From contig OX387604.1 in the NCBI GenBank assembly GCA_947568835.1, positions 9,455,860 through 9,519,859 of the forward strand: a stretch of DNA of 64,000 nt, in the 5' to 3' direction. The translations under genes were made by a program, and so were the position numbers. The stretch comes from Protonemura montana. Its lineage: Eukaryota > Arthropoda > Insecta > Plecoptera > Nemouridae. The notes beneath the pieces were generated by a model. That model was not told the origin of the DNA. It ran no database searches and saw only the letters and a program-made list of their open reading frames with translations. This document shows, in pieces, positions 11,093 to 17,000 of the stretch (the stretch's first letter is position 1; every line of letters begins with the position of its first letter).

Positions 11093-14000
11093 GTACGTTT
11101 TGCTCGACACCGGACATTTCTTCAGGTCTCTCTCGAATGGACCATTATAGCCATTGATTGCGTTTGTCAGTCAGAATGTCAGCGCTAATGTTAATCGGTT
11201 TAAGTACTTAACCGACACTAATGATAATTTGGAGTGGGAAATTTCGATTCGTTATTTTTCGCAGATAACTCACATTTGAAACTAGTTTCCGCTAGCTGAT
11301 CTTTCTAATTGCTAACTCTAACAATTTATACACAATTGTCGATATTTTTAGCCGTAATTACTAAATTGTAGACGTCTGTTAAAAACGGTAGCCGCAAGTG
11401 CCATCTGGTGGCTTCGACCGTTACCACGTGCTCGAGGCTCGTATGCTTAGTGAGCGCTGACTCTGACCAGTACCACGGCTATAGTATTTTCAGGGTTAGA
11501 ACTACCTGTAAAATGGCGGACCACGCGGCCTTTTTCCAACATTTGTGTATAAGCGTTGAGTGTGCAGGTTATAGGTAGAGACAGAACGTTAATGTTACAG
11601 TTTCAGCGTGAAAAATAGCCGCCAAATGACTACCTTACCGACAAAAATGCAGAGTACCGGAACTCCCCGTTAAGTGGAACCACTGTCGTATGAAATTTAA
11701 TTTTGATATTTCTCGTGGGTTAGTCGCTTTTGAATAGCGTTACGTGTGTATCAATCGTTGAGGTAAACATTGATGAAGATCATCTGAACATGAAAAGTCT
11801 CAAAAGCGAGTAAGCCTACGAGAAATATCAAAATTAAATTTCATGCGACAGTGGCTCCACTTAACGGGGTGTTCCGGTACTCTGCATTTTTGTCGGTAAA
11901 GTGGTCATTTGGCGGCCATCTTTCACGCAGAAAGTTTAATATAACGTTCTGCCTCTACCTATAACCTGCACACTCAACGGTATAAGCTTTTAAGGGCTAA
12001 TGTTGCCAAAACACCGTGGGATCGGCTATTTTTACTGGTGGTCGCCTGGAAATGGTGCAGCTTTAGTCGTCTGCTTACGCTGCCGAGCTAAATGCTCGGC
12101 ATTTAGATGTGTGCACCTGTAAACCAGTTGGGGGTGAAAATCAGGCTGCATCCTCAGCTAAGTAGGCGACATTCCATTCTTCTGCGATTGTGTGAGCTGC
12201 TTATGTCGCACCATTTGATGCAATCTAAAAGAAAAATAAATAAAAAGCGAAAATTTTAAATTTTCTGTTGACATTCGCAAAAGTTTCACTGCAGACGAAA
12301 CATATAAAATTAATAACATTACGAAATTTTGTAAGATTTATTTATTTCTCTTTTCATTTTTTTTCCTTTGTCTTGTAAATAGACAAAGATAGACAAAGTT
12401 TTAATGTCTTCTGGGACTTCTTTCGATTATGAAATTAAAATAATGCGAGTTTTAAAATTCGGTAATTTTAAGTTTTTTTGTACATAAATCTCGTCGGAAG
12501 GATGATCTTTTTTCAACTTGCCTCATCATCTAATAATGAAGATAGTAAATAACTTATCAGTGCTCCGATAACTCTATGACCTAATGACGATTGCGTCATG
12601 CAATGCTGCAGCCAAGCATATCATACTGCAACCGTTGAGTGTAGGTTATAGGTAGAGTTTCAACGTCAATGTTACAGTCTCTGCGTGAAAAATGACTACC
12701 TTACCGACAAAAATGCAGAGTACCGGAAGTTCACGTTAAGTGGAGCCACTGTCGTATGAAATTTAATTTCGATATTTATCGTATTTACTCGCTTCTTAAT
12801 ATTGTTACGTGTATATCGATCGTTGAGGTAAACATTGATGAAGATTTTTTGAGCATGAAAAGTTTCAAAAGTGAGTTAACCTACGAGAAATATCGAAATT
12901 AAAATTCATACGACAGTGGCTCCACTTAACGTGAACTTCCGGTACTCTGCATTTTTGTCGGTAAGGTAGTCATTTTTCACGCAGAGACTGTAACATTGAC
13001 GTTGAAACTCTACCTATAACCTACACTCAACGCTGCAACTGTAAAGGTGGGGATTCATTACTTTTGTGACTTCCTGTTTTGTGCATATAACCCCCATTTT
13101 CTGCAGCTGTCAGAGTTCAACTAGATAAATATTTATATAATAATCTCGGATTGAAGCATTCCATTGCATTTTGCATTATATTACGGTATTTGCATGCTAG
13201 TGAGATTGCGCTTGTTCACTGTACTATCATCGTAATAATTAACAATTATGCAGAATACCCAAAGCACTCAAATAATCATACTCGTAATTGTGCTTTGACA
13301 CACAAATCTAGTCGTGATTTTTCGAAAAGAAATATAAATTTCGTGCTTGTTATTTGTTTTTTCTCGGCTTGGGTGTTTTGCCAGAATATCGCACATTTTA
13401 ATTTCGCCAACAAGTAATTCACTATCCATTGGCACTTGTTGGTTTTACTGAAATGTATCGTACCTACTATTGAAAATAGGGAAACCAAAGATTCATGGAT
13501 ATTGGAAGAAAAACGATCCTCAAGTGAACCTAATATTCGAGTGTTATACTTTTAATTGCATATCTCCTCCACCATATATAAAAATGCTTAGATGTACCTG
13601 CACCAAATGTCGAAGAACTTACCGATTCATGACTCAATAATGTTAATGTTTCTCGACAAACGCGAAGAAAAAAAGTCAGGCGTGACACGAAAATATGTTC
13701 GACGTTCTGAATGTAGGCATTTTAAGTTCTTCGTATGTAGAAATAGTTTCTCAAATCATATCCATATGCAGGATAAACAAGGAGGCATTATACATTATTA
13801 CATACTGTTCACCGATAACAGGACAGCATTCTTGCTTCATTTAATACTTTGTAGCTCTCAAACAATGTAGTTTCTCTTCCATACACATACGGCATAACCC
13901 GACAAGCCAACTACCCGACAAGTATTCTAGCGTTGAGTGTAGGTTATAGGTAGAGTTTCAACGTCAATGTTAAAGTCTCTGCGTGAAAAATGACTACCTT

Positions 14001-17000
14001 ACCGACAAAAATGCAGAGTACCGGACAATCACGTTAAGTGGAGCCACTGTCGTATGAATTTTAATTTCGATATTTCTCGTAGGTTAACTCACTTTTGAAA
14101 CTTTTCATGCTCAAAAAATCTTCATCAATGTTTACCTCAACGATTGATAAACACGTAACGATATTCATAAGCGAGTAACCTACTATAAATATCGAAATTA
14201 AATTTCATGTTACAGTGGCTCCACTTAACGTGAACTTCCGGTACTCTGCATTTTTGTCGGTAAGGTAGTCATTTTGCACGCAGAGACTGTAACATTGACG
14301 TTGAAACTCTACCTAGAACCTACACTCAACGATTCTAGTGTTAATGGTAAAACAGTTTTTTAAGACAGAGTTCTCTATTCTTGTCCCTGTCTAATGAAGG
14401 GTAAACGTGAAGTGTTCGTTCGCGAATCGCTAGATAACTGCATGCAAGGAGTGCAGATTCACTTGGTTGTGCATTGCATACGTTGTGTGCTGTGCAAGAA
14501 TTGTATTGGTCTTCGTGCATCCCTGCCAAATGAGAACAACAATTGTCACTCTCCCGACGCGTTATCTCAGCGTGGTGCTCATTTAAACAAAACTGTTTCT
14601 GACATACTAGATGAGCAATAATGCATTCGCTGGCGCTTAGAAAATCAGTTTAGTTGGCAATGTTAAAATGCAATGAAATAAGTTTTTTTTTTCACGGTGT
14701 TAATAATGATAATCATAATTGATAAGCGTAGCGAGCAAAGCGAAAGCTGCAATTTACCCCAGAAACAAAATCGCTTGTGTTTTTTGTTTGTTTGCATTTT
14801 TGTTCGCGCTCTAGCGGACAAAGCCTTCTCCGATTTGAACCAAATTTTCGCACCACGTTTATACCATATGCTTTTTTTTCAGAACAACTGATCGAATAGT
14901 TTTGTCATACTATTCAAAATGTACGAATATTTTCGGATTTTTTATACACTTTTCGGATCTGTAACGCCAAAAGCATTCGACATTTAATCGCTAAACTTTA
15001 CAGAGATGTGAAATGCATCAAATTAAGTAGTTCCAAGGTTTTTGAGCCCGTAAGTGTTCCCTCTCGCTTTTTATTCACAAATTTCGACTTCATTTTTGTG
15101 CATTTTGGCTGTTGGTATGCCAGCAAAAGTATCCACAAGTGTTTGTAAAATGATGACGTCACATTTCATCATCTCGAAATATCGCACCGCTCATCTTCCA
15201 ACGCAACTCAAATTGCGTTCGCGAAGTCCTAGTTATTTTAATAAAACACTCTCCTCACATAGGGAATATAGGGAGTAGGGTACGCAGTCCTTTTGTTGAA
15301 AACTTAAAATGTGAATTTATCTCGAAGGGAAGTAACAACACATGTTCGAAAGAAATTAAATTAAAACAGGGTGGACTTTTTTTAAATTTTAACTACAGTT
15401 TTTTAAGAGGGCGCCTGTCCTCCACACCACTTCCACCGCCTCACAGGGAACAATTCGATTCACTCATAACAAATTATGGCCAGCGGTCACAGCCTATAAA
15501 CTTTACCCCCTTCAACATGTCTTTATTGCGTAATATTCGTGTGCTCATTCTACCTACATTCTTACCTTCAATCAGGTATTATTCATTCATCCTATCTAAT
15601 GATTGGATTGGTTTGATGAATTACGCGAACGATTACACCGCGAAATAAGGATCAATAATAAATAACGTGTAATTAGTTATCCCATCTTGCTTGCTATGAA
15701 TGGCGTACGCGTTCCATACATTGCACGTGACAATCTAGTACTTTACTTTGGCTCCTATTCTTTCCTGGGAAACAATAAGTAGAGGGGTGAAACGGCATGG
15801 CATCGGTACAGCAGCAACCCCATGCAAACATCGCTACGGTCGTAATAGCACTTAACAAATACTTCAAAAAACATGTACGTAACGAGCATGGTAACCCAAC
15901 TCAACGCAAGTAGAAGCTACTTTAGGGCTTAGCTACACTATGGTTGCTTGCAATAGCTGGCTGCATTTAAAATCGTCCGTACTAATTAACTAGATATCAC
16001 AAACAAAAGGCGCCTGGTTTGTCAAGTACCTTGATGACGTCTCAACCAACCCGGACCCAACTCCTAACCACACCACACGTTGTCAGAAAGCAAGTATGGC
16101 TGAGCAGTACGCAGTGACGAGTAAACAGACTAAGCAGTTACCTGCAAGTAGTGTTCGTATATACCTGGATACTCATTCAGAATTTAGAATTAAAATCTAA
16201 AATATTGTAAAAAATGTGTACGCCAATGGAAAATTGCATCAGGAAAGAAATCATTAGAAATCGTGGTTAAAATAATTAAAAATTCCCCCCACACCCACCG
16301 AAATTTGAATGCGCCGCTTGCCGCTACTTCAGTTTCGATAGGTCTTGCTAGTCTCTAATTTCACAACGAAGTATTCAATACCAGTATTCACTGAATATTC
16401 AATATACTATGTTCAGGAACTGCAAATTAATTAGTCAACATTTTTATTTTTCTGTTTCTCAAATCAACTGGTGAAATCACCCTTAAAAGCTGATAGCTAC
16501 CCGGTTTCAAAAAGCATGTGGGCAGCTTTTTCCAGGGGCTGCAGAGACCTGTATCTCAGGTTGAACCAAAGCAGGGACTCTATTGCCCCAAGCTAAGCGA
16601 CATTGAATTTTGATGCGAGTGAACCTTGGCCAATCACAATTTGAGTTAGTGCTGCCACAAGAGGCTGTTGCCAAATGTCTTGCGAAGCCAATTTTCATTA
16701 AACTTCATTTCATCCCGTGAATGCATTCAAAATCCTGCAACCCAATCGTATTGACGTGATTATAACGCTGTAAAATCTAGACCCCATTCTCAAAGCTCAC
16801 AAATCCCATATCTGGTATCAGTGGACCCATTGTGGGCAGCTTCGCCCTTCGCTTTCTCAAGAAGAAATGTAGATTAGGTGTGGTCAATTTGATGTGACTA
16901 TCCCTTATATCCTACCCTTGCAATTCTCTAGTGCTGAAGTCGTGAATTATAGCAAAGGAAAGGGCGAACTGCTCGGGGGATTCCCTGGTTCCCTGCTCCG

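What the first reader, a model, noticed from the sequence alone, without database searches (positions are those of the whole stretch)
11547..14338. Family of about 400-bp palindromic elements with 7-bp target duplications
Three copies within 2.8 kb start with CGTTGAGTGT, have arms identical or near-identical over about 130-165 bp, and each is flanked by its own 7-bp direct repeat (GTATAAG, CTGCAAC, ATTCTAG). Most known DNA transposon superfamilies make 2, 4, 8 or 9 bp; 7 bp is unusual and does not point to an obvious transposase. The arms also contain a nested inverted repeat (CGTTGA..TTCAACG).
Basis: seen in the sequence. Interest (0 to 1): 0.75.

Follow-up and report, generated by a model that had tools for sequence, protein, structure and literature searches.

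The report
P-element-type miniature transposons, 7-bp duplications
The three palindromes are short non-coding copies of a P-element-type jumping gene whose transposase-coding relatives sit elsewhere in the same genome and make the same 7-bp duplications, so the kind is known, although this family and a satellite repeat built from its end add detail.

Summary
Confirmed: three palindromic elements (11554-11979, 12633-13032, 13931-14331), each with an exact 7-bp target duplication. The own genome (258 Mb, unnamed) holds 396 + 396 exact copies of their 25-bp end. Of 30 distinct two-ended copies, 26 have an exact 7-bp duplication, 3 differ by one base, 1 is displaced; none has 8 or more. The target is palindromic and close to GTANTAC, published for Galileo, a P-superfamily transposon of Drosophila. 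So 7 bp does point to a transposase. Elements of 4.96, 6.45 and 7.8 kb with homologous ends (58 bp, 81-86%) encode a P transposase; 10 of 11 have exact 7-bp duplications. The window elements are best read as P-superfamily MITEs moved in trans. That the 7.8-kb family is the mover is inferred; MITE interiors do not derive from it. Membership in Galileo is not claimed. The oddest by-product is a 47-bp satellite (6,250 exact border matches) whose unit is the element's 40-bp end plus a target-like heptamer.

The parts
11547..11553 (.). left target duplication GTATAAG of copy 1
11554..11979 (.). copy 1, 426-bp palindromic P-superfamily MITE, the most diverged of the three (87% to copy 2)
11980..11986 (.). 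right target duplication GTATAAG of copy 1
12626..12632 (.). left target duplication CTGCAAC of copy 2
12633..13032 (+). copy 2, 400-bp palindromic P-superfamily MITE; four places in the genome carry it without a difference, this one included
12692..12708 (.). 17-bp motif ATGACTACCTTACCGAC (element positions 60-76, left arm), also found near the right end of a second P family; candidate transposase contact site (inference)
12957..12973 (.). the same 17-bp motif in the right arm, inverted
13033..13039 (.). right target duplication CTGCAAC of copy 2
13924..13930 (.). left target duplication ATTCTAG of copy 3
13931..14331 (-). copy 3, 401-bp palindromic P-superfamily MITE, opposite in orientation to copy 2 (96% identical to it)
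14332..14338 (.). right target duplication ATTCTAG of copy 3

Best explanation
The three elements are non-autonomous, palindromic (foldback-like) miniature transposons (MITEs) of the P superfamily. A P-type transposase made elsewhere in the genome recognises their terminal sequence of about 58 bp (CGTTGAGTGT...CTCTGCGTGAAA), cuts the element out and joins it to target strands 7 bp apart in a palindromic site close to GTANTAC; gap repair leaves the 7-bp duplication. Shown: the ends, the 7-bp duplications, the target motif, and coding elements in the same genome with homologous ends, the same duplication length, a like target and an open P transposase frame. Inferred: that this coding family (7.8 kb, 1,013-aa frame from its first ATG, with a complete THAP match) or a close relative moved the MITEs, and that the motif at element positions 60-76 is bound by its THAP domain.
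For: 7-bp duplications in 26 of 30 copies exactly, target T at position 2 in 26 of 26 and A at position 6 in 24 of 26, at least 4 of 6 matches to GTANTAC in 16 of 26 against 3.8% of window heptamers. Published Galileo duplications: 7 bp, GTAGTAC, GTATTAC, GTANTAC (passages). Coding element C3:12288644-12293604, 4,961 bp, GTATTAC on both sides. The exact 24-bp end of the coding family forms 11 facing pairs, and all 11 overlap a P-transposase RNase H match; 10 of 11 have exact 7-bp duplications. Pfam: THAP, Tnp_P_element, TNP-like RNaseH_N, GTP-binding and RNaseH_C all over cut-off; PDB 6p5a P transposase E 9.7e-34. MITE positions 1-58 align to the two ends at 86% (E 2e-14) and 81% (E 5e-10). 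In the protein search the 11 copies are 99-100% identical to the query and no other scored match exceeds 68%.
Against: Only the outer 58 bp are shared; MITE interiors show no convincing match to the coding element, so the MITEs are not simple deletion derivatives of it. MITE ends differ from the coding ends by indels. One coding copy (C5) has unequal flanks, and a twelfth pair (C16, 3.3 kb) has no transposase match. No transposition was observed; the lists show only their first 100 places, so a closer coding element could have been missed.
Confidence: 0.88

Rival explanations
1. The MITEs belong to the P superfamily but were moved by another P family, extinct, decayed or not found, and not by the 7.8-kb family.
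For: End identity is only 81-86% and interiors differ. Many decayed P-type matches at about 45-68% identity are present; their ends were not read. A second P family shares the 17-bp motif of MITE positions 60-76.
Against: Among the 30 P loci read, only the 4.96-7.8-kb family showed CGTTGAG ends; the second family ends in CTTAGAG. Same duplication length and target in MITEs and coding family.
Confidence: 0.33
2. The elements belong to another superfamily with duplications near 7 bp (Dada 6-7 bp, Mutator or hAT 8-9 bp with trimming; lengths recalled).
For: Foldback-like long arms are often assigned to Mutator, e.g. Tetris (PMC4079207 passages).
Against: No 8- or 9-bp duplication in the copies read; GTANTAC-like target; coding elements with homologous ends carry a P transposase.
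Confidence: 0.03
3. The long inverted repeats are host hairpin-RNA loci, not transposons.
For: Very stable hairpin. Transcription was not tested.
Against: Hundreds of dispersed copies with fixed boundaries and a private flanking heptamer each.
Confidence: 0.01

Closest known systems
Galileo (P superfamily, Drosophila); passages of PMC2775673, PMC4168063, PMC3688188 read
   Same: 7-bp duplications, palindromic target GTANTAC, P-type transposase with THAP domain, many non-coding foldback-like copies, TIRs that grow by internal tandem repeats; Galileo's THAP site lies about 70 bp from the end, the shared motif here at 60-76.
   Different: Galileo TIRs are 0.5-1.2 kb; here the coding element has about 76 bp and the MITE about 150-bp arms. 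Galileo's conserved 40-bp end is in a figure not held, so not compared; no tree possible. The host is not identified, so whether it lies outside Drosophilidae is inferred from TTAGG repeats only (that Drosophila lacks them is recalled).
P element of Drosophila melanogaster and Pdre2 of zebrafish (PMC7776569, PMC10983969 passages)
   Same: Same transposase architecture (THAP, HTH, RNase H split by a GTP-binding domain); sequence match to 6p5a.
   Different: Both make 8-bp duplications; TIRs 31 bp and 13 bp.
1360/Hoppel (P superfamily; named in PMC4168063 passages; its duplication length is recalled as 7 bp, seen in no call)
   Same: P superfamily.
   Different: Not compared: no sequence at hand.
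Tetris foldback element and its satellite, D. virilis (PMC4079207 passages)
   Same: Foldback-type element whose arm repeats seeded a satellite.
   Different: 8-10 bp duplications, assigned to Mutator by its authors; repeat TIR-220, here 47 bp = 40-bp end plus target-like heptamer.

Membership tests
P superfamily | Transposase with THAP, HTH, RNase H and GTP-binding insertion domains in elements with homologous ends | tested here: met
   for the coding family; end homology to the MITEs
P superfamily | 7- or 8-bp target duplications | tested here: met
   7 bp: 26 of 30 MITEs exactly, 10 of 11 coding pairs
P superfamily | The transposase acts on the MITE ends | not testable with these tools
   needs binding or excision assays
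Galileo | 7-bp duplication with consensus GTANTAC | tested here: met
   against passages; the match is to a looser motif (16 of 26 with at least 4 of 6 places)
Galileo | Long TIRs (0.5-1.2 kb) on the coding element | tested here: not met
   TIR about 76 bp at 91% (the 87-bp match includes flank), definition
Galileo | Conserved 40-bp terminal sequence | not testable with these tools
   shown only in a figure
Galileo | Transposase groups with Galileo in a tree | not testable with these tools
   no Galileo or 1360 protein sequence at hand
MITE (non-autonomous miniature element) | Short, many copies, inverted ends, own target duplications, no transposase gene | tested here: met
   no ORF of 110 aa or more overlaps 11547-14338
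Mutator / Foldback with 8-10 bp duplications | 8-10 bp target duplications | tested here: not met

The most novel reading that the evidence does not exclude
A P-superfamily MITE end has become a dispersed 47-bp satellite whose unit is exactly the 40-bp transposon terminus plus a heptamer (GTTAAAC) that fits the transposon's own target motif. Element positions 41-47 (mostly GTTACAG or GTTAAAG) themselves look like a target, so an insertion into a like heptamer leaves two near-identical heptamers 40 bp apart, one outside (the duplication), one inside; slippage or unequal exchange between them would yield a 47-bp tandem. The 7-bp target preference would thus be built into a satellite-forming device.
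Probability: 0.35. Interest if true: 0.55.

Novelty: new member of a known kind. Interest (0 to 1): 0.38.

Why it matters
It ties these 7-bp duplications to a P-type transposase: length and GTANTAC-like target, described for Galileo in the papers read, hold here for a family that has both MITEs and open-framed, nearly identical coding copies in one genome. That makes target choice in the P superfamily testable beyond the classic 8-bp P element. The satellite unit of end plus target heptamer is a concrete, testable route from transposon to tandem repeat.

Tried and rejected
Nested self-insertion as origin of the 47-bp satellite: the expected right junction (element end, heptamer, element position 48 onward) was sought exactly and with up to 2 mismatches: 0 matches. 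Not supported; slippage is inference.

MITE as internal-deletion derivative of the coding element: rejected, only the outer 58 bp align well.

CGTTGA at the edge of L052-L055 looked like an end but lies inside the 7.8-kb element.

Exchanged duplications (inversion, as in Galileo) for the C5 copy with unequal flanks: the left flank of the C16 element matches neither; left open.

Literature: searches. The letters CGTTGAGTGT occur in 31 papers; the 10 listed are by title not about transposons, the other 21 were not seen.

Host identity: unresolved. A 30-mer of TTAGG gives 6,912 + 6,102 overlapping matches, which fits an arthropod (recalled) and no more.
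Full report
Observation. Copy 1 (11554-11979, 426 bp) is the most diverged (87% to copy 2); copies 2 and 3 (12633-13032, 13931-14331) are 96% identical and lie in opposite orientation. Each has an exact 7-bp flanking repeat that does not extend to 8. The single-strand fold of copy 2 is far outside chance (z -37.9 against 100 shuffles).

Family. In the window's own genome (258,480,905 bases, 34 contigs, unnamed) the first 25 bases of copy 2 occur exactly 396 times on each strand, the reversed control never. Four places, the window's included, carry the 400-bp element without a difference. I compared flanks in the 38 loci L001-L038: the 8 best matches and the first 30 places, all of the latter on contig C1. 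They hold 30 distinct two-ended copies. Five loci without a second end recognised at up to 7 mismatches, a diverged extra copy in L007, and four repeat views of the same copy were left out. Of the 30, 26 have an exact 7-bp duplication, 3 a 7-bp one with one mismatch, and one (L031) GTATTAC displaced by two bases. None has 8 or more. Of twelve loci of the 426-bp type, seven had two ends: 3 exact, 2 with one mismatch, 1 with two, 1 with a 6-bp match only.

Target. In the 26 exact duplications position 2 is T in 26 and position 6 is A in 24; position 1 is G, A or C, position 7 C or G in 22. The heptamers are palindromic about their centre (1.73 of 3 complementary pairs, window background 0.76), and 16 of 26 match GTANTAC at 4 or more of 6 places (background 3.8%). 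Passages of PMC2775673 and PMC4168063 give 7-bp duplications for Galileo, a P-superfamily transposon, with GTAGTAC, GTATTAC and, over six Drosophila genomes, GTANTAC. That was the lead to the transposase.

Transposase. The P-type RNase H domain PF21787 has 138 matches in the genome (150 of 170 candidates scored). Thirty of these loci were compared with the MITEs; five (L057-L061) begin with CGTTGAGTGTGCATATAGGTAGAGGCCCAACG. The element at C3:12288644-12293604 is 4,961 bp with TIRs of about 76 bp and GTATTAC on both sides. Of the four other 4.96-kb copies, three have exact duplications (GTTTTAG, GTACGTA, GTACTAC); the one on C5 has GTTATAA and ATATTAC, no duplication. The exact 24-bp end occurs 12 + 11 times, and 15 + 12 times with up to two mismatches: twelve facing pairs, five of 4.96 kb, two of about 6.45 kb, four of about 7.8 kb, one of 3.3 kb, and three unpaired ends. 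The eleven longer pairs each overlap a PF21787 match; the 3.3-kb pair on C16 overlaps none, and its right flank was not read. The 6.45- and 7.8-kb elements also have exact duplications: GTAATAT and ACAATAT, GTCATAT twice with identical outer flanks (taken as one insertion later duplicated), GTCTTAC and ATATAAC. So 10 of 11 coding pairs, 9 of 10 independent insertions, have exact 7-bp duplications.

Protein. The 1,070-aa frame of the 4.96-kb element matches THAP, Tnp_P_element (HTH), TNP-like RNaseH_N, GTP-binding and RNaseH_C models over their cut-offs and the P transposase of 6p5a/6pe2 (E 9.7e-34, residues 277-734). In the 7.8-kb copy on C1 the frame has MPRKRDMCSHIGC (1,013 aa from that M) and matches THAP model positions 1-86 of 87 (run on 933 aa that end at a locus border). 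In the 4.96-kb copies this start is missing and other sequence precedes IGC, so they look like internal-deletion derivatives, although their THAP match from model position 5 still passes the cut-off. The four other 4.96-kb copies are 99.85-99.91% identical to the C3 copy over 3,394 bp. A search with 377 aa of the transposase finds the 11 copies at 99-100% and no other scored match above 68% (109 of 235 candidates scored).

Link. MITE positions 1-58 align with the right and left ends of the coding element at 86% and 81% (alignment). Beyond that the interiors show no convincing match. Shared ends, the same duplication length and a like target make a P transposase the mover; that it is this family and not a lost sister is likely but unproved. 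MITE positions 60-76 recur exactly in a second P family (C1:1549247-1552132, 2,886 bp, ends CTTAGAG, duplication CTTACAC), about 160-180 bp from its right end. Galileo's THAP site lies about 70 bp from its end (PMC3688188 passages), so the motif is a candidate contact site; the published footprint is in a figure and was not compared.

Satellite. Some 426-type ends stand in tandem. L088 and L089 hold three arrays of 15.5, 22 and 7.5 units of 47 bp; in two of the three the last unit runs on into a MITE body. The unit is element positions 1-40 plus GTTAAAC. In the ends read, positions 41-47 are GTTACAG 44 times, GTTAAAG 12 and others 9 (overlapping loci not de-duplicated), mostly in keeping with the target motif. 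A 27-mer across the unit border occurs 3,322 + 2,928 times, control 0; at 47 bp each that is about 0.29 Mb, counting exact matches only. The right junction expected from nested self-insertion was not found. Growth between the outer duplication and the inner target-like heptamer would explain the unit length; this is inference. Routes from transposons to satellites, some through duplicated target sites, are reviewed in PMC12628747 (passages), and Tetris is a foldback case (PMC4079207 passages).

Verdict. A real, well-defined transposon family of a known kind: P-superfamily MITEs with coding relatives. The view that 7 bp points to no obvious transposase is not upheld. Membership in Galileo is not claimed: its long-TIR feature is not met by the coding element and the tree could not be made.

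Noticed in passing
window 44109-44159 (flanks 44102-44108 and 44160-44166): A 51-bp near-perfect palindrome with ends CTTAGAGAAAAGAATACGGG and its own exact 7-bp duplication CTTTGGG; its ends match those of the second P family (L070, duplication CTTACAC). The exact 35-mer across its centre occurs once in the genome. It looks like a near-minimal P-superfamily derivative.
   Followed up: partly
G000 C1:560112-560798, C1:967608-974118 and beyond; L088 1174-1905; L089 825-1858 and 2586-2937: A 47-bp satellite whose unit is the MITE's 40-bp end plus GTTAAAC; 3,322 + 2,928 exact 27-mers across the unit border.
   Followed up: partly
G000 C5:7184296-7189256: A 4,961-bp coding copy with unequal flanking heptamers, GTTATAA and ATATTAC: possible recombination between copies.
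   Followed up: partly
L070 843-1227 (C1:1548442-1548826): Another palindrome of about 385 bp (82.5% self-complementary) with no match to the MITEs described here.
   Followed up: no
G000 C16:7421374-7424693: A 3.3-kb element with the coding family's ends but no P-transposase match: perhaps a further non-coding derivative.
   Followed up: no
window 4118-4470: Tandem array of 14 bp, 25 copies, 97% matches.
   Followed up: no
window 48368-50113 (minus strand): Broken overlapping frames that by eye resemble a non-LTR retrotransposon reverse transcriptase; no family search was run.
   Followed up: no
G000, e.g. C1:16524876-16526433 and C1:11637666-11638095: Interstitial TTAGG blocks far from contig ends, with degenerate spacing (first 100 places).
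   Followed up: no
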